Virus record (IMG/VR): IMGVR_UViG_3300042090_002485
Location: 1 to 64,000 of that record
Strand: one strand, 5' to 3'
From: a virus
DNA: 64,000 nucleotides
Translations under genes and position numbers: made by a program
Notes under the pieces: generated by a model
What the model was told of the DNA's origin: nothing
Seen by the model: the letters and a program-made list of their open reading frames with translations, nothing else
Database searches by the model: none
Part shown: positions 5,202-63,981 of the stretch, in pieces
Numbering within the stretch: position 1 is the first letter of the stretch
Layout: each line of letters begins with the position of its first letter

Positions 5202-5274
5202 CGAGCCCGGCGGGGGTCGAACCCGCGACATCCGAGTCCATCAGCTCGGCGTTCTGCCACTGAACTACGGGCCC
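5202..5274 (-). tRNA. tRNA-like gene with 8-nt anticodon loop (possible tRNA-Ile GAT)
   Basis: On the minus strand the sequence folds as a full cloverleaf: a 7-bp acceptor stem (one G-U), D-arm GTTC-AGTGGCA-GAAC, T-arm GCGGG-TTCGACC-CCCGC, variable loop ATGTC. Anticodon stem CCGAG/CTCGG encloses eight bases, CTGATGGA, instead of seven. Counting from U33 the triplet would be GAT (Ile); a four-base reading is also conceivable. CCA is not encoded. Antisense to neighbouring genes. Confidence 0.75.
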
Positions 5275-5296
5275 TTGTTCGCTGTGCATCGTAACG

Positions 5297-5378
5297 TGGG
5301 GACGGCGGGATTTGAACCACGCGACCTCCGGCTCGTGCTCGCGCACTACCGGCGCTCTGACCGCTGAGCTACATCCCC
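5297..5378 (-). tRNA. tRNA-like gene with anticodon loop replaced by a GNRA hairpin
   Basis: The acceptor stem GGGGATG/CGTCCCC pairs throughout, the D-arm GCTC-AGCGGTCA-GAGC is canonical, and TTCAAAT gives the T-loop. The T-stem has one extra T (GCGTGG opposite CCCGC). Anticodon stem CCGGT/GCCGG encloses 15 bases that contain GTGC-GCGA-GCAC, a 4-bp hairpin with a GNRA tetraloop, so no normal anticodon can be assigned. It is either a degenerate tRNA or a tRNA-like RNA with another role. Confidence 0.6.
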
Positions 5379-50660: not shown

Positions 50661-51101
50661 TTAGAAGAGGCGTCCGACTGCGTGTCCGAGGCCGCGACCT
50701 AGCGCCATCCCGATCGGCGCGACAGCGAGTCCGCCTGCTTGACCGCCGTACATCATGCCCGCGAGACCGCCGATGCCGCCGAGCAGGCGCGCCGCGCGGC
50801 CCTGCTCGGGGTCGCTGTGCATCATGCCGGGAAGCGCAGCCAGCGTGCCGAGGGTGCCGATGCGGCCCAGCGTCTGGCGAACAGGTTGGCCGGGCAGCGT
50901 CGGCCACAGCACCTGGCGCGGGTGCAGCGCGCCGCCCGCGCGGAACGCGGCGGGCCCCTGCACGAACGCCTCCGGTCCCATGCCGACCAGGCCGAGGTTG
51001 CGTGCCGCGCTGATCCCGGTGTCAATGAGGTTGGCCTCCTTGAAGCCGAAGCGCGCGCGGGCTGCTGCCGCGCCCGCTTCGTGTGCACTGGCGATGGTCA
51101 T
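50661..51101 (-). CDS. Tagged glycine-zipper protein, 146 aa
   Basis: HEAGAAAARARFGFKEAN at the N-terminus, then helices and a glycine zipper (LLGGIGGLAGMMYGGQAGG). Overlaps the beta' C-terminal gene's stop by one base (TGATG). Confidence 0.55.
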   Translation of the reverse strand: MTIASAHEAGAAAARARFGFKEANLIDTGISAARNLGLVGMGPEAFVQGPAAFRAGGALHPRQVLWPTLPGQPVRQTLGRIGTLGTLAALPGMMHSDPEQGRAARLLGGIGGLAGMMYGGQAGGLAVAPIGMALGRGLGHAVGRLF

Positions 51102-52879
51102 CAGTAGCCTCCGTCCTGGCCGAGACCGAACTCGGCACCCGCGACGTACGCCGGCACCGGCGAGGCGCCGTGCAGGTTCGACACGTCGCCGCGGTGGATG
51201 CCCGCGAGCAGAGACTCCTTGAGGTAGCGGTGCGCCAGGCGCGCCATCCAGTCGGGGTTCAGCAGCGGCGTGCGCGACGCGGCGCGCATGACGGGCACCG
51301 CGCGGGGCCCGGTCGTCGCGATCGGCACTGACGTCACGCCGTGGCGCGTGAGCTGCTCGACCATCGGCGGCGTGATCATCGTGCCCGCGGTGTGGTGAAG
51401 CACGGTGTCGGCCAGGGTCTCGCCGACCGCGTCAGCCGTCGGTACGCGGCGCTTGTCGGCGGCGAGCGCGGCGTGGAAGCGGTTGTAGTCGATGACGTCG
51501 CCCTTGAGGAACGCGTCGTCTGGTCCGGGGTCGACGACCTGGACGTAGTTGAGCACGCTCTTCGCGAGCGTCTCGAGGTGGCGCTTGTCGACCTCGGAGC
51601 CTGAACGCTTGTAGACGTCGGCGAGCGCGTCGACGAGGTAGCGCCGGCCCTCGCCGAGGCCCTTGTGCTCGACGACCTCGTCGGGCTTGGGCACGCCGTC
51701 AGAGAGCTGGTCGCCGGCGTAGACCGACTGGCCCGGCGCGACGAGGACACGGTGCTCGGGCGCCACGTAGTGTCGGGTGTCCCCGACGGTGACGTAGTGC
51801 CCGCCCTGTGGCGCGGCCTCGATGCCCTTGACCTCGCCATCGAGCCCGGCGAGCACTGCTTTGTGGGCGAACGACGACGGCACCTCGAGCAGCGAGCGCA
51901 CGCCCTTGATGCCCTCGAGTTTTTTCTCGTCGTCAGCGCGCGCGACGCGGCCGCCGTGCTTGGCGTTGAGGCTGAACTGCGTGAGCGGCTCGCTCAGCGC
52001 CTGCGCCGCGCGCACGCCGACGTTGGTGCCGATCGGGTGCAGACCACCCGCGGGCGCGAGACCCTGGCACTTCTGGCAGACGCCATGTGGCGCCTCGCAC
52101 GTCATTGGCGAGCGCACGGTGACGGTCTTGCCCTCGCGCGTCAGCTCCGACGCCAGTGCCGGCGTGACCAGGCGCCCGTCGGTGAGGTAGCGGTCGATGA
52201 CGTGCGGGTCCGACCCGAGCATCGCGATGCCGTTCTTGGTGCCGCAGTCTGGCGTCGTGATGAGCTGGTCGCCCATGTTGTTGACGAGGATCTTGGCGAG
52301 GTCGCCTGGCTCGACGACGGAGATGTTTGAGAGCACCGCGTTCACGCGCGCCTCGCCGCCGGCGACCCACGCATCGGCGGGCTTGAGCCCCTCGGAGAAG
52401 CTCCGGTCGATGAGCCACGGTACGACCTTGCCCTTCGAGTCGCGCACCATCACCGGCGCGCCGACCGCGCGCATCAGCTGCGCGGCGTTGCCGCGGCCGC
52501 CGGAGCGGACCATGTCGCCCATCGTGCCCGGGTGCTTCTTGGCGACGCCGAGCATCGCGTCGAAGCCCGCGGCGAGCGCCTTCTCCTTCTCGGCCGCGGT
52601 GCCGGCGCGGCGGAACGCGGCTGCGTGCGGGCCGAGCGCGGCGTCGCGCTCCTCGCGCTTGGGCGCGATGTCGTCCAGCCCGACCGAAATGCCGTCGAGC
52701 GTCGCGACCTCGTCGCCGACGCGCTTGAGCTTGGTGACAGCGTCGGGGTAGCCGCGCGGATCCTCCTTGGCGAGGCCGACGAGCAGCTCGTTGAGCGAGC
52801 CCTTCGTCAGCTCGCCGCGTCCGCGCCACTTCGGCGGCAGCGCGGAATCTACGAGGTGGCGACCGAGCGTGGTGGGCAC
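51101..52879 (-). CDS. RNA polymerase beta' subunit, C-terminal half
   Basis: 592 aa from GTG 52879. It begins at the point where bacterial beta' has T-T-V-G-R (here TTLGR, 3-7), continues through SVGLDD (65-70), a zinc site C212, C261, C268, C271 (CEAPHGVCQKC), then VGVRAAQALSEPLTQFSLNA (287-306) and KHGG (307-310), the bridge/trigger-helix region, and ends with the beta' clamp-like tail. The N-terminal half, with the catalytic NADYDGD, is fused to beta in the gene at 54348. Both halves must assemble for activity. The bases between hold a nuclease and two tagged proteins. Confidence 0.9.
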   Translation of the reverse strand: MPTTLGRHLVDSALPPKWRGRGELTKGSLNELLVGLAKEDPRGYPDAVTKLKRVGDEVATLDGISVGLDDIAPKREERDAALGPHAAAFRRAGTAAEKEKALAAGFDAMLGVAKKHPGTMGDMVRSGGRGNAAQLMRAVGAPVMVRDSKGKVVPWLIDRSFSEGLKPADAWVAGGEARVNAVLSNISVVEPGDLAKILVNNMGDQLITTPDCGTKNGIAMLGSDPHVIDRYLTDGRLVTPALASELTREGKTVTVRSPMTCEAPHGVCQKCQGLAPAGGLHPIGTNVGVRAAQALSEPLTQFSLNAKHGGRVARADDEKKLEGIKGVRSLLEVPSSFAHKAVLAGLDGEVKGIEAAPQGGHYVTVGDTRHYVAPEHRVLVAPGQSVYAGDQLSDGVPKPDEVVEHKGLGEGRRYLVDALADVYKRSGSEVDKRHLETLAKSVLNYVQVVDPGPDDAFLKGDVIDYNRFHAALAADKRRVPTADAVGETLADTVLHHTAGTMITPPMVEQLTRHGVTSVPIATTGPRAVPVMRAASRTPLLNPDWMARLAHRYLKESLLAGIHRGDVSNLHGASPVPAYVAGAEFGLGQDGGY

Positions 52880-52880
52880 G

Positions 52881-53273
52881 TCACATCCCGGGGTAGCCGC
52901 TGCCGCCGCCCATCATCATCTGTTGCTGACGGGCCTGTTGCTCGCGCTTTGCCTGGTTGTGCCGATGGAGCATGTAGAGCGCGCCGCCGGCGAGCAGCGA
53001 CGGCGCGAGCGTGCGCATGTTGCCGAGCGCGTTCTGGCGTGCCTCCATGCCGAGCGCGGGCGTTGCTGCGCCGCCGAGACCTTGGCGGAGGTTGCCGTAA
53101 AGGTCCTTCGCAGCGCCCATCTGTCCCTGTCCGAACGCCTTGGCACGGTCCATCAGGCCGGGCCCCGCGGGCGCGGGCGGCGCTGCGGGCGTCGACATGA
53201 ACGCGGGGTCGTTGGCGAGCTTGAAGAAGCGGATGGCGGCATCGCGGCCGCGCGCGGTGGAGTCGTTCAGCAT
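52881..53273 (-). CDS. Tagged virion-region protein, 130 aa
   Basis: TARGRDAAIRFFKLANDP is a clear shared tag. Pro/Ala-rich linker, then a hydrophobic helix (ALGNMRTLAPSLLAGGALYML) and a Gln/Met/Gly-rich tail. Overlaps the DUF3008-like gene by one base. Lies within the split of beta'. Confidence 0.6.
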   Translation of the reverse strand: MLNDSTARGRDAAIRFFKLANDPAFMSTPAAPPAPAGPGLMDRAKAFGQGQMGAAKDLYGNLRQGLGGAATPALGMEARQNALGNMRTLAPSLLAGGALYMLHRHNQAKREQQARQQQMMMGGGSGYPGM

Positions 53274-53734
53274 CAGAACACCGTTCCGATTGATGTGGGC
53301 TGGCCCATGTCGCTGAGCCGGTTCGCGGTATCACCTGCCGACAGGTTCGACGGCGCGCCCCACGAGGTGGAGCGGTCGAGCGGGTCGCGCGCAGACAGCT
53401 GGTCGCCGGGTGACAGCGGTGAGTCGAGGCCGCTGAGCGCGGCTGCGAGGTCGTCGGCCGAGCCTAGGCTCGCGCGTTTGGCGTTGCGCTCGTGCTCGGT
53501 CTTGAACGCCTCGTCCCAGCCGTGGAACTCGCGGCGCGGGATCTTCAGGCGGATCTCGGCGGAGGCTTCCTTGAAGCCGAACTGCTCGAGCGCGGCGGCG
53601 GCGCCGAGCACGAACGAGTGCTTGACCTTCTCGGGGAGCTTCTTGTCCTTGGGCGTCGCATCCTCGAACTCCTTGGCCAGTTCGGGGTGGCGGGCGTACA
53701 TGAACCGCCGCTGCGCCTGGGACTTGAAGGGCAC
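53273..53734 (-). CDS. DUF3008-like tagged protein, 153 aa
   Basis: From GTG 53734: PFKSQAQRRFMYARHPELA is the typical start of DUF3008-like phage proteins, and a TATAAT box ends five bases before it, so the TTG at 53740 in the same frame is inside the promoter and rejected. Residues ~36-56 (HSFVLGAAAALEQFGFKEAS) carry the shared tag internally. Confidence 0.6.
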   Translation of the reverse strand: MPFKSQAQRRFMYARHPELAKEFEDATPKDKKLPEKVKHSFVLGAAAALEQFGFKEASAEIRLKIPRREFHGWDEAFKTEHERNAKRASLGSADDLAAALSGLDSPLSPGDQLSARDPLDRSTSWGAPSNLSAGDTANRLSDMGQPTSIGTVF

Positions 53735-53738
53735 GACC

Positions 53739-53747
53739 AATTATAGG
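53739..53747 (-). promoter_or_regulatory. CCTATAATT element
   Basis: Perfect minus-strand copy; TATAAT (53745-53740) is five bases from GTG 53734. Confidence 0.65.
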
Positions 53748-54376
53748 TGCTTGTGCTTGCGCCGTTGTTTCAAGCGCTGGTGCCAGGCGACCTGTCTTCG
53801 ATGTGCCGCTTCTGGGACGCGATGACCGGTGTCTCTCGTCAAGTACTGCGTCGCGCGGTCAGCCCATCCAGGCTGTTCGATATGACTTAGCGCTTGGTTG
53901 CATCCTCCACACAATGCACCACGTATCGCTCGTGTTTGATGGTCGTGGTCGACGTCAGTAGGTTTTTCATTACACAACGCACACGTGCCGTCTTGGCTCG
54001 TGATGATCGCGTCCCAGTGGCGCTGTGATATGCCCTTCGATGTAAAGCGTCCGTGTGCTTGTTTATCAGGTATGCAGGTCTTGCAATACTTCTGGTTTGG
54101 CGACGTTGGTACAAATGGGTCTGAGCATAGTTTGCAATTGCGCGGCGCGTGAACGCGTTTGCGTTCTTGTTCCTTTTCGACGCGTTTCGCTTCTTTCTTG
54201 GAGCGCCTTACGCCTTGGCGTCCTAGAAACGCTGCAATTGCTCCCTTGGGAATCTTGAACGCGCGGCTAAGTGTTAGCGGCGACTCCCCGTTCTTGTACT
54301 CACGCAGAACGCGACGGCCGATTTTGCTCCAGGCGATTTTGGTACCGTCACGCGCCGCGGATCTCGATCGGGTCAT
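53741..54376 (-). CDS. Endonuclease VII-type HNH nuclease inserted behind beta' N-terminal half
   Basis: 211 aa. A basic N-terminal helix-turn-helix-like part (LREYKNGESPLTLSRAFKIPKG), CKLCSDPF ... YCKTC, then CALCNEKPTDVDHDHQT and LCGGCNQALSHIE, the zinc and D-H-D-H catalytic elements of recombination endonuclease VII. Such nucleases are often homing enzymes. It overlaps the end of the RNA polymerase gene by 29 bases and is lower in GC than its neighbours, suggesting recent arrival. Confidence 0.75.
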   Translation of the reverse strand: MTRSRSAARDGTKIAWSKIGRRVLREYKNGESPLTLSRAFKIPKGAIAAFLGRQGVRRSKKEAKRVEKEQERKRVHAPRNCKLCSDPFVPTSPNQKYCKTCIPDKQAHGRFTSKGISQRHWDAIITSQDGTCALCNEKPTDVDHDHQTRAIRGALCGGCNQALSHIEQPGWADRATQYLTRDTGHRVPEAAHRRQVAWHQRLKQRRKHKHL

Positions 54377-57300
54377 TCAGCGCGATCTCGCCGCGGTGAT
54401 AAGCCGCCATCGCCTCTTCCTGCGACGCGAAGTGCCGTGTCTTCTCGCGTGATGGCGCGCGGGTCGCGCGGTTAAGGCCCATCAGGCTCTCCATCTCGGG
54501 CGCGACGTTGAGCACGCCCGGCCGTTTGTCGGCGAAGATCATGCTCGACAGCGTCATCTTCTTGGCGTCTTCGACGCCGCCCGGCGTCACAGGCGCGTGG
54601 ATCTGCATCGCGTCGCCGTCGTAGTCGGCGTTGGTACCCTTCTCGGCGAATGGGTTGAGCTTGAGCGTCTTGCCGTCGACGACCTTGGGGTAGGCCGCGA
54701 TGATGTTGAAGCGGTGCAGCGATGGTGCGCGGTTGACCAGCACCGGACGTTCCTTGCTCTCGTTGAGCAGCTCCTGACGCGCGATCGGCGACTTGTCGTC
54801 GACCATCTTCTGCGCGTCAGTTGCGGCGTAGCCCCTGCGTACCAGCCGGCCAACGACGAACCGGCCGTACATTCGCCACAGCACACCCTCGGGAACTCCG
54901 ATTTCATCCATGTTGAGCGTAGGGTCAGGCGCAATCGTAGCACGGCCTGATACGTCTTGCTGTCTGCGCATTAATCTAGATTGGAAAAATCCACTACCTG
55001 GGCGTGTCCCCGTGATCGCCGCGATGTAGCCCTTGGCACCGCGCTTCTCCGCGCCGGGGCTGACCGGCTCGCCGACGCCAAACAGCGCGCCGACGGCGTC
55101 GTAGAGGTGGCGCCGCGGGTCAGCCAGCTCGGACTCGGGCAGCGTCTTCTTCGCCTCGCGCAGTTGGTCGCTGGCGAGGAACGCGTCCTTGTAGAGCAGG
55201 TTCGCGTCGCCGACCTGGAGGCGGCCGTCCTGCAGCGGCAGGATCGGGCGGATGACCGGCGGCGTCACCGGGACCTTCGTCAGGACGTAGGCGTTCGCCG
55301 GCTTGAGGTCGCGGTCCTTGAGTGCCTCGAGGTACTTGATCTGCTTGACGACGCCGTCGAGCGCGGGCCCGCGCGCGCGCCGCGACTCCTCGCGCAGCTC
55401 GGCGAGCTTGGCGTCCACGTCGATGTCGTCGAGCGCGCGCCGGAACCACTCGCCGCCGCGGCCGACACGCTCGGAGAACTCCTTCTGGGTCAGGCCGAGC
55501 AGGCGCCGCACCGGCTCCTCGAACACCGGGTTGACGATCGGCTCGTGCAGATCGACGTGCGACCACTTCGTGCCGGACATGCCGCCGGTGGTCGTCGGGT
55601 CGAACAGGCCGCCGGTCTCGGGGCGCAGGTCCTTGGCGCGAACGAGCTTGCTGGCGTCCTTGAGCGCGCCCGACGACATGCTCTTGATGTCGGCGTCGGT
55701 GAGCGGGCCGAGTGCGAGTCGCGAGCCGCTCTTGTCGACCTTGACGCCGGCCCCGGTGAGCATCGCGAGGAACTTGTCGTAGGCGAACGTGGTCTTGGGG
55801 GCGGGCGTGGGTAGGCCGAGCTGGACCGCGCGCCAGAACTCGTCACTGCGCTGACTCTTCACCGACGCGGCCTCGCGGAGGATGTTGCGGGCGTTGTGCG
55901 CGACCAATCCGTCAAATTCCATGCGGCCTAGCCCCTTGGCGCCGTCGTCGCCGCCGCGTGCTGGCTGCTGGTTGTAGTCGTAGCGCTCGGCGCCGTGCGC
56001 GGCCCAGTTGCTGTCCGTCGTCTTGAAGAGCTTGAGGATGTAGCTCTTGCCGACCACCACGTCGGGGATCTTCTTCCCTGTGATCGGATCGGACACGGTC
56101 TCCTTGTCCGTTAGCCCGTGTTCGGCGAGCAGCTTCTTGGCGTACTCTACATTGTCCCGTCCCGGGACGTACTGCGGTACGACGACGGGCTTGCCCGTCT
56201 TCTCGGCGACCTTGCCGAGCATCGTCTCTACGGTCTGCGCCGGGTTGATGCGCGATACGATGCCGGCCGACGTGAACAACAGGTCGACCGGTCGGCCGTC
56301 CTGGTCGTGGATCATCTGCTCGTCTGGGACGATCTTGGCGATGACCCCCTTGTTGCCGTAGCGGTTGCAGTTGCCGCACCAGGCGGGTTTGCCATTGCGG
56401 CGAACATACAGCACGTGCCCCGGCACGGTGAGGCAGTACACGGGTCGCGCGTAGTCTTCGATGAAGCCCTCTTCTTGCGCGTTCTGCTTCTTGGTGTGCC
56501 CGTGATTGATCTGCGGCTCGAGTTTCGTCGTCACGATGCTGACTTGGTAGAATGGACGCGCGTGGCTCGCCTTGCCCATGATCGTGACGGGGCCTCCCTC
56601 GTGGATCCGATCCACGTTGGCCGCCCAGCCCACGTGCAGGCAGAGGCGCTGGACGTCATCGGCTAGGCGTCGCGACACAGTGAAGTACGCGACGGGGCGC
56701 CCGCACGGCTTCGACGAGCCGTCTCCCCACATCAACCACTGGAACAGGATGCGCAACTGCGCTGGTGGCAGGTCGAAGACGTTGTCGGGGATGTACTTCT
56801 CGTGCGCGAGCCCGAATTGCGAGAAGTACGCGAGCAGTTGCTTGCCGTAGATTCTGATTTTCTCTGGTCCCGGATAGAACGCGATACCGGCGGCGCGCAG
56901 TGCGTCGATCAGCTGTTGTCGGTTGGGCTCGCGCGTCTGCGTGATGTCGATGCCGTACGTTCCGGGTTGGTCGAACGTATTTCCTTCGGAAAGGAATGCA
57001 CCGAGCAGCAGCAGGAACGTGTTCATCGGCATGCGCAGCGGTGGCAGCTCGCGGGTCCCGACACCGCCCTGCCCCGCGCGAACGGACATCGCGGGGAACT
57101 CGAATACGTCGACGTGCGTGCCCTGCCAGTTGCCGTTCTTCTTGAATTGGACGCGCTTGCCTGCAATCGCGTCGGCGCGCAGCAGCTCGAACTGATCGTG
57201 GTCGCGCCGCTTGACGTACATCTGGTGGTTGGCGGTGACTGCGAAGTCGACCTGTTGAGACCGCACCGCGTACATGCGCCCGCCGGTCGGGTAGGAGTGT

Positions 57301-59762
57301 GTGGCTTCTGGATTCGCGTAGGTGATTTGGTCGCCTTGAAGCGTGCAAACTTCGTCCTGTAGCGTCACGGCCGCGATCGGCTTCCACCCGCGACGCGTCA
57401 GAACTTCCGTCGCCTCGTCGAAGCAGAGCTTGTCCCCGATCTGCAGAGCCTCGGTCGTGCGCACCGACGCGGAGGCGCGATGCGGCGTCTTTGCGACGTC
57501 GACGACGTGCCCGGGCTGCTCGTGCGTCCAGCGCTCGACGACCTCCTCGAACGGCTTGACCAGCGACTTGGACAGCTTGCCGAGCAGCGCGGCGTCGCCG
57601 GTGACGCGGTTTGGGCGCACGCCGACGACGATTGGGTCGCCTTGGTGGAGAATCGCGCCGGGCTTCGCGACACCATCCTCGTCGAGGTTGGCGTACTGCG
57701 CGGCGGTGTACTTGTTGCCGAAGTAGGTCCGGTGCTTCTCGCGGCCGATTTCCGTCTCGCCGCTGCGCTCGACGCCGTGCTGGTACATGTGCTCGCTGAC
57801 GAGTTTGTCGGCGGCGCCCTGCGACACGACGATGCCATCGTTGGTGTTGAGGCCGCGGTAGGGCATGTACGCCACGCGCAGGTTGGTGCCGAGCGCGAGC
57901 GCACCGTCCTTGGTGAAGTTCGACTCGGCGAGCGGCTGGTCCTTCTCGACCTTGTCGCCGGCCTTCACCAGCAGCGTGTTGTGCAGCGCGGTCTTGGCCG
58001 CGAGCGGGAAGTCCTTGTCGTAGTGCAGCTTGTCGGGCGCCGCGGACGTCTTCTCGTCGTCGTGGCGGTCCGAGAGGTGGATGTAGTCGTCGTCGATCTT
58101 TGCCACGACGCCGGCGCGCCGCGCGGTCGGCACGACCTGCTTGACCATCTCGTGCTCGACCGAGACGCCGGGCTTCCACGACTCGACCTGCACGAGGGGC
58201 GCCTCGCGGTGGACGAGCGGCAGCGCCTGGCCCTGGTGCTTGCTGGCCATCAGCACGCGGTTGCCCTGGATGCCGTAGATGAGCGGCAGCAGGTTCGACG
58301 TCGGGCCGTAGAGGTCGGCGACGTGCTCGATCTGGTGCGTGACCTCGGACCCCGGGACCCTCTCGACCTTCCCTCGGTTCATCGCGTCGACCAGGCGACT
58401 CGCCTCGACGTTCTCGCCCGGGAACGCGACCACCGCCTTCTCCATGTCGGCGGCCTTGAGGAACGTCGACTTGCCCGTTCGCACGTCGCGGACGGGCGCG
58501 TAGAGGTTGCCCTTCTCGTCGCGGCGCGCGCCGATCGCGGCGCGCAGGTCGACGCCGATGGAGAAGCTCTCCGGTGACCGCGCCGGGTCGAGGATGCCCA
58601 TGTGGGTCGGGTGGACGTCGCGGGCCTCGAGTGGGATGGCGCGCTCCGACGGGATGGCGCCCTCGCCGAGCATCGTCACCTTCGACGCTTGGTCCATCAG
58701 CTCCATCGGGTTGATCTGCATCGGCACTGACGACAGCGACGTGCCGGTGAGCAGGCCGCGCACCGCGCCGGTGAACGGCCCGGCGGGCAGCGCCTTCTTG
58801 ACGTCGCCGCGCGCCGCGTCGAGCTTCCACCCCAGCTTGGTGCGCATCGCGCGGGCGCCGAGCTGGATGCGCTCCTTGACGAAGTCGTCCACCGAGTGGA
58901 GCGTCTTGAACGCGAGCGAGTCGCGGTCGTCGACGTCGGCCGCCGTCCGGTGGACGTCGAGCAGCTTCTTGCTGGCCGCGAGCATCGCGCTGGCCGACGC
59001 CTTGTCGTAGGGGTAGCCCAGCGTCTTGACGCAGACCTCTGGGTCCATGACGGTGTTGTCGAAGTAGTCGCGCAGCACGCGCGCCTTCTCGTCTTGCGTC
59101 GTCGCGGTCTGCTTCGCGGGGTGGACCAGCGTCGAGTACAGCTTGTCGACGTGTTTGTCCGGCGCCTTCCACGCGTCGCGGTTCATCTGTGCGATCTCGG
59201 AGCCCCACGCCGCCGCGATGTCCTGCTGCGGCACGCCGAGCGCGCGCAGCACGGGGTGCAGCGGAATCTTCGACGTGGTGTGTGAGGGCTGCATGTAGAG
59301 CAGGCCCTTCTCCGCGTCCATCGACACGCGGAAGTTCGCGCCGCGGGCGAGGTTGAACGTCGCTTCCAGCTCTTCGTTGCCGCGTCGGCGGACGTACGCG
59401 CCGGGCTTGGTACGCAGCTGGTTGGCGACCGAGTACTCCGTGCCGTCGACGATGAAGGTGTGGCGCGGCGTGAAGTACGGCAGCTGCATCAGCGTGAAGT
59501 CGCGCGCGGAGCTGACGGGCTGGCCCGCAGAGTCCTTGACGACGATGTCGCCACGGATGCGCTCGGACAGCGTGCGGCCCTCGAGCACGGCCGTCTTCTG
59601 CTCGCGCGATGAGAACTCGCGGGGCTCGACGCGGATGTTGGACAGCTCGAGCGTGTGCTTGCCCGCCTTGAGAGGGAACACCTGCGCGAGGGCCTCGGCC
59701 GCCTTCTTGCGGATGGCCTCGCGCCGGGTGGCAGCGTCTTCGATGACCGGGCGCAGGTTCAT
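54348..59762 (-). CDS. RNA polymerase beta - beta' N-terminal half fusion, with intein
   Basis: 1804 aa before splicing, about 1452 after. Beta part: TFIVDGTEYSVANQLRTKPG near the start, RDVHPTHMG (381-389), GDKL (776-779) and, after the intein, CNRYGNKGVIAKI (1132-1144), i.e. the two catalytic-lysine motifs of beta. From ~1340 it changes into beta': LTDADIKSMSSG, RPVLVNRAPSLHR (1672-1684) and NADYDGDAM (1711-1719), the magnesium-binding loop. The beta' zinc-binding N-terminal domain is missing. It stops just where bacterial beta' has T-T-V-G-R, which opens the separate gene at 51101. Start codon 59762 has only a weak Shine-Dalgarno. Confidence 0.93.
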   Translation of the reverse strand: MNLRPVIEDAATRREAIRKKAAEALAQVFPLKAGKHTLELSNIRVEPREFSSREQKTAVLEGRTLSERIRGDIVVKDSAGQPVSSARDFTLMQLPYFTPRHTFIVDGTEYSVANQLRTKPGAYVRRRGNEELEATFNLARGANFRVSMDAEKGLLYMQPSHTTSKIPLHPVLRALGVPQQDIAAAWGSEIAQMNRDAWKAPDKHVDKLYSTLVHPAKQTATTQDEKARVLRDYFDNTVMDPEVCVKTLGYPYDKASASAMLAASKKLLDVHRTAADVDDRDSLAFKTLHSVDDFVKERIQLGARAMRTKLGWKLDAARGDVKKALPAGPFTGAVRGLLTGTSLSSVPMQINPMELMDQASKVTMLGEGAIPSERAIPLEARDVHPTHMGILDPARSPESFSIGVDLRAAIGARRDEKGNLYAPVRDVRTGKSTFLKAADMEKAVVAFPGENVEASRLVDAMNRGKVERVPGSEVTHQIEHVADLYGPTSNLLPLIYGIQGNRVLMASKHQGQALPLVHREAPLVQVESWKPGVSVEHEMVKQVVPTARRAGVVAKIDDDYIHLSDRHDDEKTSAAPDKLHYDKDFPLAAKTALHNTLLVKAGDKVEKDQPLAESNFTKDGALALGTNLRVAYMPYRGLNTNDGIVVSQGAADKLVSEHMYQHGVERSGETEIGREKHRTYFGNKYTAAQYANLDEDGVAKPGAILHQGDPIVVGVRPNRVTGDAALLGKLSKSLVKPFEEVVERWTHEQPGHVVDVAKTPHRASASVRTTEALQIGDKLCFDEATEVLTRRGWKPIAAVTLQDEVCTLQGDQITYANPEATHSYPTGGRMYAVRSQQVDFAVTANHQMYVKRRDHDQFELLRADAIAGKRVQFKKNGNWQGTHVDVFEFPAMSVRAGQGGVGTRELPPLRMPMNTFLLLLGAFLSEGNTFDQPGTYGIDITQTREPNRQQLIDALRAAGIAFYPGPEKIRIYGKQLLAYFSQFGLAHEKYIPDNVFDLPPAQLRILFQWLMWGDGSSKPCGRPVAYFTVSRRLADDVQRLCLHVGWAANVDRIHEGGPVTIMGKASHARPFYQVSIVTTKLEPQINHGHTKKQNAQEEGFIEDYARPVYCLTVPGHVLYVRRNGKPAWCGNCNRYGNKGVIAKIVPDEQMIHDQDGRPVDLLFTSAGIVSRINPAQTVETMLGKVAEKTGKPVVVPQYVPGRDNVEYAKKLLAEHGLTDKETVSDPITGKKIPDVVVGKSYILKLFKTTDSNWAAHGAERYDYNQQPARGGDDGAKGLGRMEFDGLVAHNARNILREAASVKSQRSDEFWRAVQLGLPTPAPKTTFAYDKFLAMLTGAGVKVDKSGSRLALGPLTDADIKSMSSGALKDASKLVRAKDLRPETGGLFDPTTTGGMSGTKWSHVDLHEPIVNPVFEEPVRRLLGLTQKEFSERVGRGGEWFRRALDDIDVDAKLAELREESRRARGPALDGVVKQIKYLEALKDRDLKPANAYVLTKVPVTPPVIRPILPLQDGRLQVGDANLLYKDAFLASDQLREAKKTLPESELADPRRHLYDAVGALFGVGEPVSPGAEKRGAKGYIAAITGTRPGSGFFQSRLMRRQQDVSGRATIAPDPTLNMDEIGVPEGVLWRMYGRFVVGRLVRRGYAATDAQKMVDDKSPIARQELLNESKERPVLVNRAPSLHRFNIIAAYPKVVDGKTLKLNPFAEKGTNADYDGDAMQIHAPVTPGGVEDAKKMTLSSMIFADKRPGVLNVAPEMESLMGLNRATRAPSREKTRHFASQEEAMAAYHRGEIALNDPIEIRGA
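56370..57425 (-). other. LAGLIDADG intein inside beta (352 aa)
   Basis: Residues 780-1131 of the fusion. Block A begins with Cys (CFDEATEVLTRRG); block B has TANH; LLGAFLSEGN and LMWGDGSS are the two LAGLIDADG helices; block F is VYCLTVPGHVLYVRRNG and block G ends WCGN with Cys+1. Excision joins GDKL to CNRYGNKG, restoring the beta active-site signature. Penultimate Gly replaces the common His. The insertion lies between the two conserved lysine motifs. Confidence 0.9.
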
Positions 59763-59786: not shown

Positions 59787-60158
59787 CTACGGGATCCTTC
59801 GCGGCAGCACGGGCGCTTCAGCATCGCCCGCGTCCTGATCCGGCCTGGCCTGCGGGAGCTGGCGCGGCGTCAGGTAGCAGACCGCTACGATGAAGTCGCC
59901 GTCCTTGGTGAACGTCTTCTCCTCGTAGCGGATGGTCGCTTCGCCGCGCAGCACCTTGTTGAGCACGTCCTCGTACTCCCCGCGGTCACCTGGCAGCCCG
60001 AACAGCTGCACATGCGCGTCGAACTCCAGTTCGGGGCCCATCTTGCGCGGGTTGCCCTCGAACGCGACCCGACCAGGCCCGCCAAACATGCCAGCAACGT
60101 CGCTGGCTCCGCGCTGGGCCTTCGCGATGGACGCTACGAAGTCGTCTTCTTCAGCCAT
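59787..60158 (-). CDS. Hypothetical protein between portal and RNA polymerase, 123 aa
   Basis: A beta-type middle (LEFDAHVQLFGLPGDRGEY, EATIRYEEKTFTKDGDFIV) and a Pro/Asp-rich end. No family recognised. Could be an RNA polymerase partner or a portal accessory. Confidence 0.45.
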   Translation of the reverse strand: MAEEDDFVASIAKAQRGASDVAGMFGGPGRVAFEGNPRKMGPELEFDAHVQLFGLPGDRGEYEDVLNKVLRGEATIRYEEKTFTKDGDFIVAVCYLTPRQLPQARPDQDAGDAEAPVLPRRIP

Positions 60159-60170
60159 CGTTGCATCCTA

Positions 60171-61952
60171 TCAGGCAGTAGCCGGGGGAGCACCGCCGCC
60201 CGATGGGTCTCCACCCTGCCGCATCGCCGTGATGGCGTCGTGGTTCTGGGCGGTGGTCTGCGCTTGGAGCCGTTCCTTGACCACGGCGTACATCACGAGG
60301 TCCTCGCTCTGCAGCGCATGCATCTGCGATTGACGTGAGCCGGGGTCAAGAGCTGCCATCTGCTGGACGATCTGATCGGCCTGCGCGATCACGGCCTGCT
60401 GGTCGTACGACAGGCCCTGCTGCCCCAGCTGCGCCTGCGAGCGCGCCTGCGTGGCCAGCGAATTCTGCCGCTTCATCAGCTCCTGCTGCAGCTCCTGCGC
60501 GGTGCGGGCGTCCTCGAGGGCCTCCTGCTTGCGCCACTTCCGCTCGTCCGCGGGGTCGACCTCGAAGGCCTCGCCGAGCGTCCGCTTGGACAGCCACGGC
60601 CCGGTCGTCGGGTCGGCCATGTTGAGCTGCAGCAGCAGGGCCTTCTGCTGGACGTCGTCGATGAACCGGAAGGGCGCGAGCGAGACCTGGACGGTGCCGC
60701 GACCGAGCTGCTTGGCGGACTTGTCCGTGATCCACTGCAGGAGGTCGTTGAGATCGCCGGTCTGGTGGACGAGCTGGTTCTCGAGCACGCGCAGCTGGAT
60801 GCCGGAGCCCATCGCGGAGAAGCCGCCGTAGATGAACTCCTTGGGCAGGCCCATGGCCGCGATGATGTTGTCCTCCGCAGCCTGGACCTCGCCGAGCGTC
60901 ATCAGTGCGCGCGCCTGGCCGCCGAGGTGCGTGACCTCGGCGGGGACCGGCGACCACATGATGTGGAGAGGGTCGCGGCGCCACTTCTTGACGCTGTCCT
61001 TCATCTGCGCCGACCACTTGGCGAGGTTGATGGTGACCAGCGGGTCGCCGTTGGGCGAGGACTGCTTGGGCGAGATGATGCGGAGCGGGACGATGTAGTC
61101 CAGCGCGATCGCCTCATTCGCCTTGCGCAGCACGGCTGCGTAGAAGAACAGCTTGATCGTCGACGCCAGCGGCGGGAAGCCCCACTGGGCCTCGATGCCA
61201 GCAGGTGCGTCCATACGCATGTGGAAGATCTGGCCCTCGGCGAACTTGAAGATCTTGTCCTCGCGGATGGCCTTCAAGAACTCCATCGGCATCGTGTCGA
61301 TGAGGTGCTTGTTGCCCTTCGCGCAGCGCTCCTTCAGCTCCTTGGGGATGGTGTAGAAGTACTCGCTGTGCCCGGTGATGGGGTTGTAGTCGATATCCAT
61401 CAGCTTCGGGTCCCAGCGGATCACCGAGAGCCGATCCTTGCGCGTGATCTTGCGGTCGACGATGTTCTTTTCGCTCGCGTCGACGCGCGTGCTGCATCCG
61501 CTGCACTCGTAGTTGAACGAGAGCTTCTTGAGCTTGAACTTGTAGTTGACCTGGTGGACGTTGGTTAGCCGCGCACACCGCGGGCACTTGAGGAAGCGCA
61601 CGAATGGCGCGTACATCGAGAAGAACGCATTGCCGTAGACGAACTTGTCGATGGCGGCTCGGATCAATGTCCGCTTCGTCTTCAAGACCTTGTCGTGCAG
61701 GTCCTCGAAGAACTGCTTGAGCGATTCGTTCTGGGTCTCGTAGATCAGGTTCGTGATCGGGTACGTGCAGAACTTCTGCAGCGCCGCGTAGATCTGCGCG
61801 CTGTTGAAGTAGAGGTACTCGCACAGCCGGAAGAGGTCCTTGAGCTTCCGCGGCGCGAACGCCGTGAGGAAATCGAAGAGCGGACTGCCCTGCGAAGCGC
61901 TGTTGTGCGACGCGAGTTCCGCGACGCCGGGGTCGAGCATTCCGTCAGGCAT
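60171..61952 (-). CDS. Portal protein with inserted zinc ribbon
   Basis: 593 aa. Portal-like layout: helical N-terminus (LFRLCEYLYFNSAQIYAAL), wing with VIRWDPKLMDIDY, clip/stem region, and a long Gln-rich helical C-terminus (ELQQELMKRQNSLATQARSQ). C123/C126 and C150/C153 (KCPRC, CSGC) form a zinc ribbon within the wing, unusual for portals. First gene of the minus-strand block; its ATG abuts the GTTTAC-CTC-GTAAAC palindrome shared with the divergent helicase gene. Confidence 0.65.
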   Translation of the reverse strand: MPDGMLDPGVAELASHNSASQGSPLFDFLTAFAPRKLKDLFRLCEYLYFNSAQIYAALQKFCTYPITNLIYETQNESLKQFFEDLHDKVLKTKRTLIRAAIDKFVYGNAFFSMYAPFVRFLKCPRCARLTNVHQVNYKFKLKKLSFNYECSGCSTRVDASEKNIVDRKITRKDRLSVIRWDPKLMDIDYNPITGHSEYFYTIPKELKERCAKGNKHLIDTMPMEFLKAIREDKIFKFAEGQIFHMRMDAPAGIEAQWGFPPLASTIKLFFYAAVLRKANEAIALDYIVPLRIISPKQSSPNGDPLVTINLAKWSAQMKDSVKKWRRDPLHIMWSPVPAEVTHLGGQARALMTLGEVQAAEDNIIAAMGLPKEFIYGGFSAMGSGIQLRVLENQLVHQTGDLNDLLQWITDKSAKQLGRGTVQVSLAPFRFIDDVQQKALLLQLNMADPTTGPWLSKRTLGEAFEVDPADERKWRKQEALEDARTAQELQQELMKRQNSLATQARSQAQLGQQGLSYDQQAVIAQADQIVQQMAALDPGSRQSQMHALQSEDLVMYAVVKERLQAQTTAQNHDAITAMRQGGDPSGGGAPPATA

Positions 61953-61953
61953 G

Positions 61954-61968
61954 GTTTACCTCGTAAAC
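61954..61968 (+). promoter_or_regulatory. Perfect palindrome GTTTAC-CTC-GTAAAC
   Basis: 15-base perfect inverted repeat in the 52-base gap between the divergent portal (ATG 61952) and helicase (ATG 62005) genes. Being symmetrical it could serve either. Confidence 0.6.
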
Positions 61969-62004
61969 ACGCAGGGCCTCTCCGTGATAGAAAGGCATCG
62001 TCAC

Positions 62005-63981
62005 ATGACGCGCACCAGGATGGACGTCCGCGTCGGCCGCGCGGGCAACGGCACCCCGGTCTTCATGATCCCGGGCCAGTCGCTCACCCACGGCCGCATC
62101 TTCGGCGCGACGTGGGACGAGCAGCGCGGGCTGTGGATGTACCCCGCGTTCTTCCCGGCGTCCGAGAAGGTGCTGGCCGACTTCGACGTGATCTCGCGCG
62201 ATGCCGAAGTGGTGTTGTCCCCCGTCGCCCAGCAACACATCGCTACCCTCGCCACGACCAAGGCCGCCCTCGCCGCGCGCGAGCTGCCGGCGTACTTCGA
62301 CTACATCACCAAGCCGTACGCTCACCAGGTCGATGGGCTCTGCCACGTCTTCCACAACATCCGCGCCGCGCTCTACTTCGACCCTGGTCTGGGCAAGTCG
62401 AAGATCGCCATCGACCTGGTGCGGCTGCTGCGGCTCGGCGGGATGCGAGGCTGCGCGCTCGTGCTCGGACCACGCGTCACCGTCGAGAACTGGGGTCGCG
62501 AGATCGATCGTCATTCCGACCGCCAGCTCAGGTGGGTCGCGCTCGTCGGCTCGCCGAAGGAGAAAGAGGCTGCGCTCGACCGCGCCGCGCAGGAGCGCGT
62601 CGACATCGTCTTGGCCACGTACGACACTGCCAAAAGGATAGTAGATTCGCTGGTTGCGCGACTACCCTACGAAGCGCTGATCCTGGACGAGAGCCACAAC
62701 GTCAAGGCGTGGACGTCCAACCGGACGACGGCTGCGTGGGAAATCGCGCAGAAGGCCCAGCGCCGGGTGCTCATGACCGGTTCGCCGACCGAGGGCGACC
62801 CACGGGACGTCTACGCGCCCTACAAGATCCTGGGTGACTGCTTCATGCCCGAGCCGCACCACAAGTTCGCGCGGATGGTGACCAAGCGCCCGTCGGAGCG
62901 GTCGCACGTCGTGCACGGTTTCAAGAACCTCGACCTGGTCAACGCCCGCACCACGTTCCTGAGCATGCGACGGACCAAGGAGGAGTGCCTGGACCTGCCT
63001 GCGCGGACCTTCGTTGACGTCGACTACCGCCTCACCGACCGCCAGACCGCGCTCTACAACCAGGTGGTCGAGGATATGGGCATCGACCCGGTGGCGTTGG
63101 CGAACTTCGCCGCGCTGCTGCGCGCCGGCGCGGTGCCCCCCGCGCTGCTTCCTGGGCAGGGGTTCCAGGGCATGACGATGCCGCACCGCGCGGTTGCGCT
63201 GCTCAAGCTGCTGCAGATCACGTCCGGCTTCATCATCAACAACATCGTCGACAACAGCTACTGCGACACGGTGAACGGCGGCAATCCTTGCGCGCATCGG
63301 CAGCACTGCGTCGACCGTGAGATTAAGCCGCGCACGTCGAAGTGCCTCGTTGACAAGACGCCGTGGCCGACCGAGACGATCTACACTGACGCCAACCCCA
63401 AGCACGACGCGATCGCGGAGCTGATCGACAGCATCATCCAGGTCCCGGACGCCAAGGTCATCGTGTGGTGTGTGTTTCACCCCGAGATGGACTCAATCGC
63501 GCAGCGTGTGCAGGACGCGGGCATCGGGCACGTCCGAGTCGACGGGACGACCGCCAAACCGATGAAGGTGATCGATCGGTTCAACGACGATCCGTCCGTT
63601 CGGGTGTACATCGGGCAGGTCGCCTCCGGTGTCGGCGTGAACTTGGTGTCAGCCGCCTACGTCATCTACAGCTCGCTGCCGTACGCGCTCACGGCCTACT
63701 TGCAGAGCCTGGACCGGAACTACAGGATCGGGCAGGACAAGCCCGTCACGGTCTACCGCATGATCGGCTTGCAGACGCTGGAGGCCGCGGTCGCGTTCCT
63801 GCTAGACCACAAGGTCGATGTGGATGCGCTGATGACCAACAAGATCGAGTGCGGACTGTGCCCTCACGTCCTGCGCTGCCAAGCCGAGCGCATCGAGCCG
63901 TTCGAGACCGGCTGCATCCATCCCAAGACGATGAAGCGCCCCGTGCTGCGGGCCCACTCGATCCACCAGAACGGAGGCTGA
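62005..63981 (+). CDS. SNF2/DEAD-like helicase
   Basis: 658 aa. YFDPGLGKSKIAID (Walker A, 126-132), LILDESHNVKAW (DESH, 229-232), VLMTGSPTEGDP, then the second lobe with KVIVWCVFHPEMDSIAQR, IGQVASGVGVNLVSAAYVI and YLQSLDRNYRIGQ, the SNF2 motif VI. The C-terminus has CGLCPHVLRCQ and a later Cys, a zinc-finger tail. ATG 62005 starts immediately before this fold; the upstream in-frame extension is rejected because it runs back through the palindrome. Probably remodels DNA in replication, recombination or transcription. Confidence 0.85.
   Translation: MTRTRMDVRVGRAGNGTPVFMIPGQSLTHGRIFGATWDEQRGLWMYPAFFPASEKVLADFDVISRDAEVVLSPVAQQHIATLATTKAALAARELPAYFDYITKPYAHQVDGLCHVFHNIRAALYFDPGLGKSKIAIDLVRLLRLGGMRGCALVLGPRVTVENWGREIDRHSDRQLRWVALVGSPKEKEAALDRAAQERVDIVLATYDTAKRIVDSLVARLPYEALILDESHNVKAWTSNRTTAAWEIAQKAQRRVLMTGSPTEGDPRDVYAPYKILGDCFMPEPHHKFARMVTKRPSERSHVVHGFKNLDLVNARTTFLSMRRTKEECLDLPARTFVDVDYRLTDRQTALYNQVVEDMGIDPVALANFAALLRAGAVPPALLPGQGFQGMTMPHRAVALLKLLQITSGFIINNIVDNSYCDTVNGGNPCAHRQHCVDREIKPRTSKCLVDKTPWPTETIYTDANPKHDAIAELIDSIIQVPDAKVIVWCVFHPEMDSIAQRVQDAGIGHVRVDGTTAKPMKVIDRFNDDPSVRVYIGQVASGVGVNLVSAAYVIYSSLPYALTAYLQSLDRNYRIGQDKPVTVYRMIGLQTLEAAVAFLLDHKVDVDALMTNKIECGLCPHVLRCQAERIEPFETGCIHPKTMKRPVLRAHSIHQNGG

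What the first reader, a model, noticed from the sequence alone, without database searches (positions are those of the whole stretch)
51101..59762. Phage-encoded bacterial-like RNA polymerase with beta fused to half of beta', and beta' split
Conserved bacterial signatures are present in order: beta GDKL...GNKG, beta' NADYDGD, the four-Cys zinc site and the bridge/trigger segment. Beta is fused to the N-terminal half of beta', and the break lies just before the T-T-V-G-R element, where bacterial beta' subunits also tolerate insertions. The beta' N-terminal zinc domain is missing. Known phage multisubunit RNA polymerases (phiKZ family, AR9) are also split but are very divergent and not arranged this way. 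This combination may represent a distinct lineage, possibly packaged in the virion because it sits inside the structural block. No alpha, omega or sigma is visible here.
Basis: partly seen in the sequence, partly recalled or inferred. Interest (0 to 1): 0.85.

Follow-up and report, generated by a model that had tools for sequence, protein, structure and literature searches.

The report
Phage RNA polymerase, fused then re-split
A ~188-kb phage encodes its own bacterial-type RNA polymerase in which the two large subunits were first joined into one chain and one was later cut again; an isolated relative carries the same enzyme, with a matching sigma factor, in its virus particle, so it probably starts transcription of phage genes right after infection.

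Summary
Confirmed. ORF 54348-59762(-) is beta joined without a break to the first half of beta'; 51101-52879(-) is the rest of beta'. Both are collinear with E. coli RpoB/RpoC over their whole length, with the catalytic residues intact. All 76 IMG/VR relatives, Salmonella phage Arash and Vibrio phages D69/D181 share the fusion plus split. Published proteomics of Arash finds both parts and a sigma factor in virions, the fused part having the most spectra. The nearest relatives (2048- and 2153-aa ORFs) keep all of beta-beta' in one chain, and a careful tree shows fusion first, then one split (100/99). The cut lies in the same linker as in cyanobacteria and phiKZ-type phages. Alpha and omega were not found. 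The lineage differs from likely mReC contigs (separate unsplit genes) and from phiKZ (beta split, two enzymes, no sigma). Arash has two promoter-like classes, extended -10 and TAAAATA, matching two sigmas. Enzymatic activity and early-transcription use are inferred. New variant of a known kind.

The parts
54348..59762 (-). beta-beta'N gene, 1804-aa precursor (1452 aa after intein removal)
   Evidence: ORF, Pfam, alignment to E. coli RpoB/RpoC
57426..59762 (-). N-extein: most of beta, ending at GDKL (catalytic Lys)
56370..57425 (-). intein, 352 aa (Cys1, TANH block, LAGLIDADG, ends WCGN followed by Cys)
   Evidence: relatives without it read GDKL-S-NR-x-G-x-KG
55754..56369 (-). rest of beta (CNRYGNKG onward) up to about the beta/beta' junction
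   Evidence: the junction is approximate, extein aa ~985-995
54351..55753 (-). beta' N-terminal half (clamp without zinc ribbon, sigma-docking coiled coil, active-site barrel)
54612..54632 (-). NADYDGD catalytic Mg motif
   Evidence: D582, D584, D586 invariant in A4
53741..54376 (-). HNH / endonuclease VII-like gene, overlaps the 3' end of beta-beta'N by 29 bp; probably a recent insertion, not the cause of the split
   Evidence: Pfam Endonuclease_7 2e-14; among relatives only in the identical contig L006, weakly in L033
53739..53746 (-). CTATAATT promoter-like element at the head of the g155-g130-beta'C gene group
   Evidence: 8 genome copies against 0.35 expected (max 1 in 20 order-4 simulations)
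53273..53740 (-). 155-aa gene of unknown function, conserved between the two RNAP genes in close relatives
52881..53273 (-). 130-aa gene of unknown function, conserved between the two RNAP genes in close relatives
51101..52879 (-). beta'C gene (592 aa): from the TTVGR element through bridge helix, zinc site, trigger loop and C-terminal clamp
52067..52246 (-). four-Cys zinc site of beta' (C212, C261, C268, C271)
   Evidence: invariant in alignments of 8 and 18 family members
51956..51958 (-). trigger-loop His308 (equivalent of E. coli H936)
59787..60158 (-). small gene between portal and RNAP (position of Arash gp205)
60171..61952 (-). portal protein; portal next to RNAP is conserved from this phage to single-chain relatives
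   Evidence: 30% to Arash gp204, E 2e-89; also next to RNAP in G004 and G003
61840..63981 (+). SNF2-type helicase near the RNAP genes
   Evidence: Pfam SNF2-rel_dom 3e-21; Arash gp198 relative

Best explanation
This is the core of a phage-encoded, bacterial-type RNA polymerase of an alpha-less, omega-less lineage. The precursor splices out an intein to give a 1452-aa beta-beta'N chain, which pairs with the 592-aa beta'C chain to form one active site: NADYDGD and the beta lysines lie on the first chain, the bridge helix and trigger loop on the second. The covalent beta-beta'N link probably replaces part of the assembly role of alpha. By analogy with Arash, the core is packaged in the virion with its own sigma (gp10 type: sigma2 and sigma3, no recognisable sigma4) and enters the cell with the DNA. 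There it starts transcription at -10-type promoters that have no -35 element. A second phage sigma (gp196 type), not detected in Arash virions, probably redirects the same core to a second promoter class for structural genes. In evolution the enzyme was first a single beta-beta' chain, then split once in the linker between the active-site barrel and the pore/funnel domains. Shown here: both genes, collinearity, residues, intein, conservation, order of fusion and split, sigma genes, promoter-like motifs. Shown in a published relative: presence in virions. Inferred: activity, assembly without alpha, injection, which sigma reads which motif.
For: Collinearity and catalytic residues. Foldseek of AlphaFold models of both pieces hits bacterial beta' (2.7e-24 for beta'C; 4e-26 for the other piece, including cyanobacterial RpoC1). 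Same two-gene architecture in all 76 IMG/VR relatives, apart from contig-end truncations and inserted elements, and in Arash and Vibrio D69/D181. Arash virion proteome (PMC10585845): gp206 3516 spectra (most of any protein), gp216 1210, sigma gp10 467, SNF2-type helicase gp217 1148. Per residue that is about 2.3, 2.0, 2.0 and 2.4 by my arithmetic, compatible with stoichiometric packaging. The window genome has orthologues of both Arash sigmas (E 7e-35 and 6e-17; domains). Alpha not found in five genomes and omega not found in its own, controls positive; one RNAP per genome. Order of events: split clade 100/99, single-chain G001+G004 100/100, G003 basal 100/99 (beta' alone agrees). Promoters: GGTATAAG 30 of 31 on one strand in Arash, 31 against about 5 expected; cTAAAATA upstream of structural genes; CTATAATT 8 against 0.35 in the window genome.
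Against: No biochemistry on any member. Virion data come from one relative at about 30-36% identity, purified by sucrose gradient, and its authors themselves raise carry-over of abundant proteins. Host alpha, omega or sigma recruitment cannot be excluded. The trigger-loop Arg933 equivalent is Asn, so catalysis may differ. TGGTATAAG and CCTATAATT also resemble host sigma-70 -10 elements. AlphaFold models have only moderate confidence (pLDDT 71-73) and no complex was modelled.
Confidence: 0.72

Rival explanations
1. The polymerase is made during infection for late transcription only, and its presence in virions is carry-over; the host RNA polymerase reads the early -10-type promoters.
For: The Arash authors raise carry-over (PMC10585845). 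TGGTATAAG looks like an extended -10 element and TATAAT is the sigma-70 consensus. The RNAP genes lie among structural genes.
Against: gp206 has more spectra than the major capsid protein, and RNAP parts, sigma and helicase have similar spectra per residue. The second sigma gp196 is absent from the same table. No -35 element is seen.
Confidence: 0.18
2. It is simply another mReC polymerase (Weinheimer and Aylward 2020), and the fusion/split is incidental variation inside that group.
For: The 2020 screen used IMG/VR and needed COG0085 and COG0086 hits, which a fused protein could satisfy; some members may be among its 97 contigs. In the trees the phage lineages sit next to each other, with bacteria as the other branch.
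Against: Two contigs from the metagenome of mReC1/mReC3 have separate, unsplit beta and beta' genes, two sets each, and one inspected keeps the N-terminal zinc ribbon. Gp23 capsid not found (no positive control) and TerL matches GpA_ATPase rather than PF03237. The two groups form separate clades at 100/99 each.
Confidence: 0.12
3. The split is recent damage: the HNH endonuclease (or an assembly error) cut a full-length beta' in this phage.
For: An HNH gene sits exactly at the break, overlapping the end of beta-beta'N.
Against: All relatives have the break, without this HNH gene. Two other genes are conserved in the gap. The Arash parts are encoded by separate genes and both found in virions.
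Confidence: 0.01
4. The phage core uses host alpha, omega and/or host sigma to assemble and start, as a modified host-type holoenzyme.
For: The core stays close to the bacterial one in sequence over its whole length; a phage sigma could alternatively serve the host enzyme.
Against: phiKZ-type RNAPs lack alpha and omega (PMC7598289); a phage sigma is found in the Arash particle; no host subunit is mentioned in the parts of the proteome table that I read.
Confidence: 0.1

Closest known systems
Salmonella phage Arash gp206/gp216 (OQ632216, PMC10585845) and Vibrio phages D69/D148/D181
   Same: Same beta-beta'N fusion, same break, portal next door, two sigmas (Arash) or an annotated sigma (D181); Arash parts found in virions.
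   Different: About 30-36% identity; Arash gp206/gp216 were annotated only as beta and beta', so fusion and split were not described; D181 has a group I intron in beta; the intein of this phage is absent.
Single-chain phage RNAPs in IMG/VR contigs G004 (2048 aa) and G001 (2153 aa), and G003 (at least 1757 aa)
   Same: Same clade; portal next to RNAP in G004 and G003; beta runs straight into beta'.
   Different: beta' not split: the whole core is one polypeptide (G003 is cut off by the contig end).
mReC polymerases (Weinheimer and Aylward 2020)
   Same: Phage beta/beta' alignable to cellular enzymes; deep branch outside Bacteria.
   Different: Likely mReC1/3 contigs: separate unsplit genes, two sets per genome, N-terminal zinc ribbon in the one inspected.
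phiKZ/AR9-type virion and non-virion RNAPs
   Same: beta' split after the active-site barrel; no alpha or omega; virion enzyme.
   Different: Theirs: beta also split, two enzymes per phage, no sigma-70-type factor, very divergent. Here: beta intact and fused, one enzyme, two sigma-70-type factors.
Cyanobacterial RpoC1/RpoC2
   Same: Split in the same inter-domain linker.
   Different: RpoC1 ends about 15-18 aa after the TTPGR element; the phage cut is before it, and beta is not fused in cyanobacteria.
Helicobacter/Wolbachia rpoB-rpoC fusion; crAss-like phage fused RNAP
   Same: Covalent beta-beta' fusion (bacterial cases from general knowledge; crAss fusion as stated in PMC7481178).
   Different: Not followed by a split of beta'; crAss enzyme not recognisable by COG profiles (PMC7481178).

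Membership tests
Cellular-type two-barrel multisubunit RNAP (beta/beta') | beta' NADxDGD and beta GDK...GxKG catalytic residues | tested here: met
Cellular-type two-barrel multisubunit RNAP (beta/beta') | Collinear domain order through bridge helix, trigger loop and second zinc site | tested here: met
Cellular-type two-barrel multisubunit RNAP (beta/beta') | N-terminal beta' zinc ribbon (bacterial) | tested here: not met
   no Cys in that region
Cellular-type two-barrel multisubunit RNAP (beta/beta') | alpha and omega subunits | tested here: not met
   PF01000 not found in 5 genomes; PF01192 not found in own genome; controls positive; contig may be incomplete
Cellular-type two-barrel multisubunit RNAP (beta/beta') | sigma-70-type initiation factor in the same genome | tested here: met
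phiKZ/AR9-type jumbo phage RNAP | beta split into two or more chains | tested here: not met
   beta is whole
phiKZ/AR9-type jumbo phage RNAP | beta' split after the active-site barrel | tested here: met
phiKZ/AR9-type jumbo phage RNAP | two RNAP sets per genome | tested here: not met
   one PF00623 locus per genome in 5 genomes
mReC (Weinheimer and Aylward 2020) | RNAP groups with the mReC clade | tested here: not met
   separate clade, 100/99; mReC1/3 identified by metagenome number only
mReC (Weinheimer and Aylward 2020) | Gp23-type capsid (PF07068) | tested here: inconclusive
   not found, but no positive control
mReC (Weinheimer and Aylward 2020) | TerL best match PF03237 | tested here: not met
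   best match PF05876; PF03237 below cut-off
Virion RNA polymerase | Enzyme present in purified virions | not testable with these tools
   Met for the relative Arash in print (PMC10585845); not testable for this metagenomic phage
Virion RNA polymerase | Transcribes early genes without host RNAP | not testable with these tools
   needs rifampicin or in vitro assay
Class 1 intein with homing endonuclease | Cys1, TxxH block, terminal Asn, Cys+1, LAGLIDADG, uninterrupted homologues | tested here: met
   the LAGLIDADG score is just under the Pfam cut-off; splicing itself not tested

The most novel reading that the evidence does not exclude
A previously undescribed RNA polymerase lineage in which a single-chain beta-beta' core evolved in phages and was then re-split at the linker also cut in cyanobacteria and phiKZ-type phages; one alpha-less, omega-less core, carried in the virion with its own sigma, serves the whole infection by exchanging two phage sigma factors.
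Probability: 0.5. Interest if true: 0.82.

Novelty: new variant of a known kind. Interest (0 to 1): 0.7.

Why it matters
It is a phage RNA polymerase that is still readily alignable to the bacterial enzyme, has no detected alpha or omega, is probably carried in virions, and comes with sigma-70-type factors, so promoter recognition and assembly without alpha can be tested with few proteins from phages already in culture. It also bears on a published dispute: whether split phage polymerases are relics of an ancestral multi-piece enzyme (PMC7824862), came from cyanobacteria, or were split independently (PMC7598289). Here the tree shows a fused enzyme first and a split later, in the same linker, which indicates that this cut can arise independently. 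YerA41 against Carin-5 looks like another case.

Tried and rejected
Split caused by the HNH gene: rejected, relatives have the split without it. Group I intron between the two genes in the window: none found by Rfam; D181 does have one, but inside beta. Second multisubunit RNAP in the genome: none. T7-type RNAP: no match, but the search had no positive control. Gp23 capsid search without positive control, so not used as proof. PHROGs on ten structural-block proteins gave little. The Arash motif GGTATAAG is not enriched in the window genome; a different word, CCTATAATT, is. Literature searches found no description of this fusion-plus-split architecture in the held library, but most subscription papers and preprints are not held.
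Full report
WHAT IS THERE. The two open reading frames are at the stated places. Pfam finds beta and beta' domains in the 1804-aa ORF and the beta' C-terminal domain in the 592-aa ORF. After removing a 352-aa intein (ORF aa 780-1131), an alignment with E. coli RpoB+RpoC and seven relatives is collinear from end to end. Extein residues 1 to about 985 are beta, and the C-terminal clamp of beta runs straight into beta' over a linker of about ten residues. beta' then continues to about E. coli residue 550, where the ORF stops, and the second ORF resumes at the TTVGR element. Catalytic residues are intact: GDK and GxKG lysines, NADYDGD, bridge helix, trigger-loop His308, and the four zinc cysteines, which are invariant in the relatives aligned. 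The N-terminal zinc ribbon of beta' is missing. AlphaFold models of beta'C (pLDDT 73) and of the beta C-end + beta'N piece (pLDDT 71) match bacterial beta' by Foldseek with E-values of 1e-24 to 1e-26, including cyanobacterial RpoC1 for the latter.

THE INTEIN. It begins with Cys, has a TxxH block and a LAGLIDADG match (2e-4, just under the family cut-off), and ends in Asn followed by Cys. Relatives without it read GDKL-S-NR-x-G-x-KG, so removal restores the catalytic loop exactly. The family is full of such elements: 26 of 81 long beta-beta'N ORFs hold insertions over 90 aa, some clearly inteins at other sites, and Vibrio D181 has a group I intron with a homing endonuclease in beta (100.7 bits) where D69 has an uninterrupted gene.

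RELATIVES. An alignment-based scan of IMG/VR gave 76 loci. Every one shows the beta-beta'N ORF and a separate beta'C ORF, except where a contig end or an inserted element truncates one. Isolated phages with the same layout are Salmonella phage Arash (gp206, gp216) and Vibrio phages D69/D148/D181. Gene order is shared: portal, a small gene, beta-beta'N, several genes, beta'C, structural genes. The HNH gene at the break is found only in this virus (an identical contig) and weakly in one other, so it did not make the break.

FUSION FIRST, SPLIT LATER. Contigs G004 and G001 encode the whole beta-beta' core in one ORF of 2048 and 2153 aa; G003 has at least 1757 aa of it. The portal gene is next to the RNAP in G004 and G003. 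In a careful tree of concatenated beta and beta' (22 rows, 1972 columns) the split enzymes form one clade (100/99), G001+G004 (100/100) are their sister (joint node 100/100), and G003 is basal (100/99). A 63-row beta' tree with diverse bacteria and archaea agrees (97 for the split clade; bacteria 99; relation of the phage lineages to bacteria not resolved, 72). The long branches of G003, L180 and mReC call for caution. The cut is in the linker used in cyanobacteria and, according to a review, in phiKZ-type virion and non-virion enzymes. It is not the same residue: cyanobacterial RpoC1 ends about 15-18 aa after TTPGR, the phage protein before it. Yersinia phage YerA41 has another beta' cut into adjacent genes where its relative Cobetia phage Carin-5 has one gene.

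HOW IT PROBABLY WORKS. In Arash virions purified on sucrose gradients, gp206 has the most spectra of all proteins (3516), gp216 has 1210, the sigma factor gp10 467 and the SNF2-type helicase gp217 1148 (PMC10585845). Divided by length, these are about 2.3, 2.0, 2.0 and 2.4 spectra per residue (portal 1.5, capsid 4.3), a rough sign of stoichiometric packaging. A second sigma, gp196, is not in that table. The window phage has orthologues of both: 102625-103383(-), E 7e-35, and 67245-68333(-), E 6e-17. The gp10-type sigma shows regions 2-3 and no recognisable region 4. Alpha was not found in five genomes and omega not in the own genome, with positive controls, and each genome has one RNAP. In Arash the word GGTATAAG occurs 31 times, 30 on one strand, mostly 30-60 nt upstream of a start codon, against 5.45 on average and at most 8 in simulations. 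Its profile is an extended -10 element without a -35 box. A second word, TAAAATA, precedes structural operons and often lies back to back with the first, for example just upstream of gp216. In the window genome (65% GC) CTATAATT occurs 8 times against 0.35 expected, one copy being at the head of the gene group that contains beta'C. A sigma without region 4 fits promoters without a -35 box. Which sigma reads which motif is inference, and host RNAP could also read -10-like elements.

RELATION TO WHAT IS KNOWN. It works like a phiKZ-type virion RNAP, but fails the tests for membership there: beta is whole, there is one enzyme, and sigma-70-type factors are present. It is close in kind to mReC, but two contigs from the metagenome of mReC1/mReC3 carry separate unsplit genes in two sets each, and the one inspected keeps the zinc ribbon. 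Their identity as mReC1/3 rests on the metagenome number and contig size, not on a sequence match. Some members of the present clade may have been among the 97 contigs of that study; the architecture is not described there. The Arash paper calls the proteins beta and beta' only. Reviews of 2020, 2021 and 2026 do not describe this arrangement in the passages I searched.

LIMITS. No enzyme of this clade has been assayed, as far as the held literature shows. Virion evidence is from one relative. Most subscription papers and preprints were not searchable. The window phage is one metagenomic contig, and the identical L006 may not be independent.

Noticed in passing
G000 79052-81769(-) (L005 15052-17769): The terminase large subunit gene (GpA_ATPase type) also carries a LAGLIDADG intein, related to the RNAP intein (26% identity).
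   Followed up: partly
L032 1-8509, and other relatives: beta-beta'N genes are a hot spot for inserts: 26 of 81 hold one over 90 aa, with inteins at several catalytic sites (SPE-S, GDKL-, near NADYDGD, near GLFD); L032 has a 2835-aa ORF with apparently three inteins.
   Followed up: partly
L004 15437-15717: Vibrio phage D181 beta gene is interrupted by a group I intron (Rfam RF00028, 100.7 bits) with a homing endonuclease; D69 has the uninterrupted gene.
   Followed up: yes
L226-L229 (G005, G006): Likely mReC1/mReC3 contigs each encode two different multisubunit RNAPs, as in phiKZ.
   Followed up: partly
L349 2344-8408; L350 2191-8414: Isolated Yersinia phage YerA41 (beta' split into adjacent genes) and Cobetia phage Carin-5 (beta' whole, sigma gene next door) carry another multisubunit RNAP lineage.
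   Followed up: partly
G000 CTATAATT sites, e.g. 21106, 35547, 162184 (all -): At several of these promoter-like sites a start codon lies only 6-15 nt downstream, which suggests leaderless mRNAs.
   Followed up: partly
Arash 109249, 137631, 139407: Early (minus-strand) and late (plus-strand) promoter-like motifs overlap head to head as CTTATACC(C/T)TAAAATA, a possible built-in switch.
   Followed up: no
window 5202-5378(-): Two adjacent tRNA-like genes by Rfam; ARAGORN calls one, with an unassigned 4-base anticodon (gatg).
   Followed up: no
phages collection OR844998.1, OR846602.1, CAKLQH020000005.1 and similar: Several records labelled as phage carry plain bacterial rpoB/rpoC and look like host contamination.
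   Followed up: no
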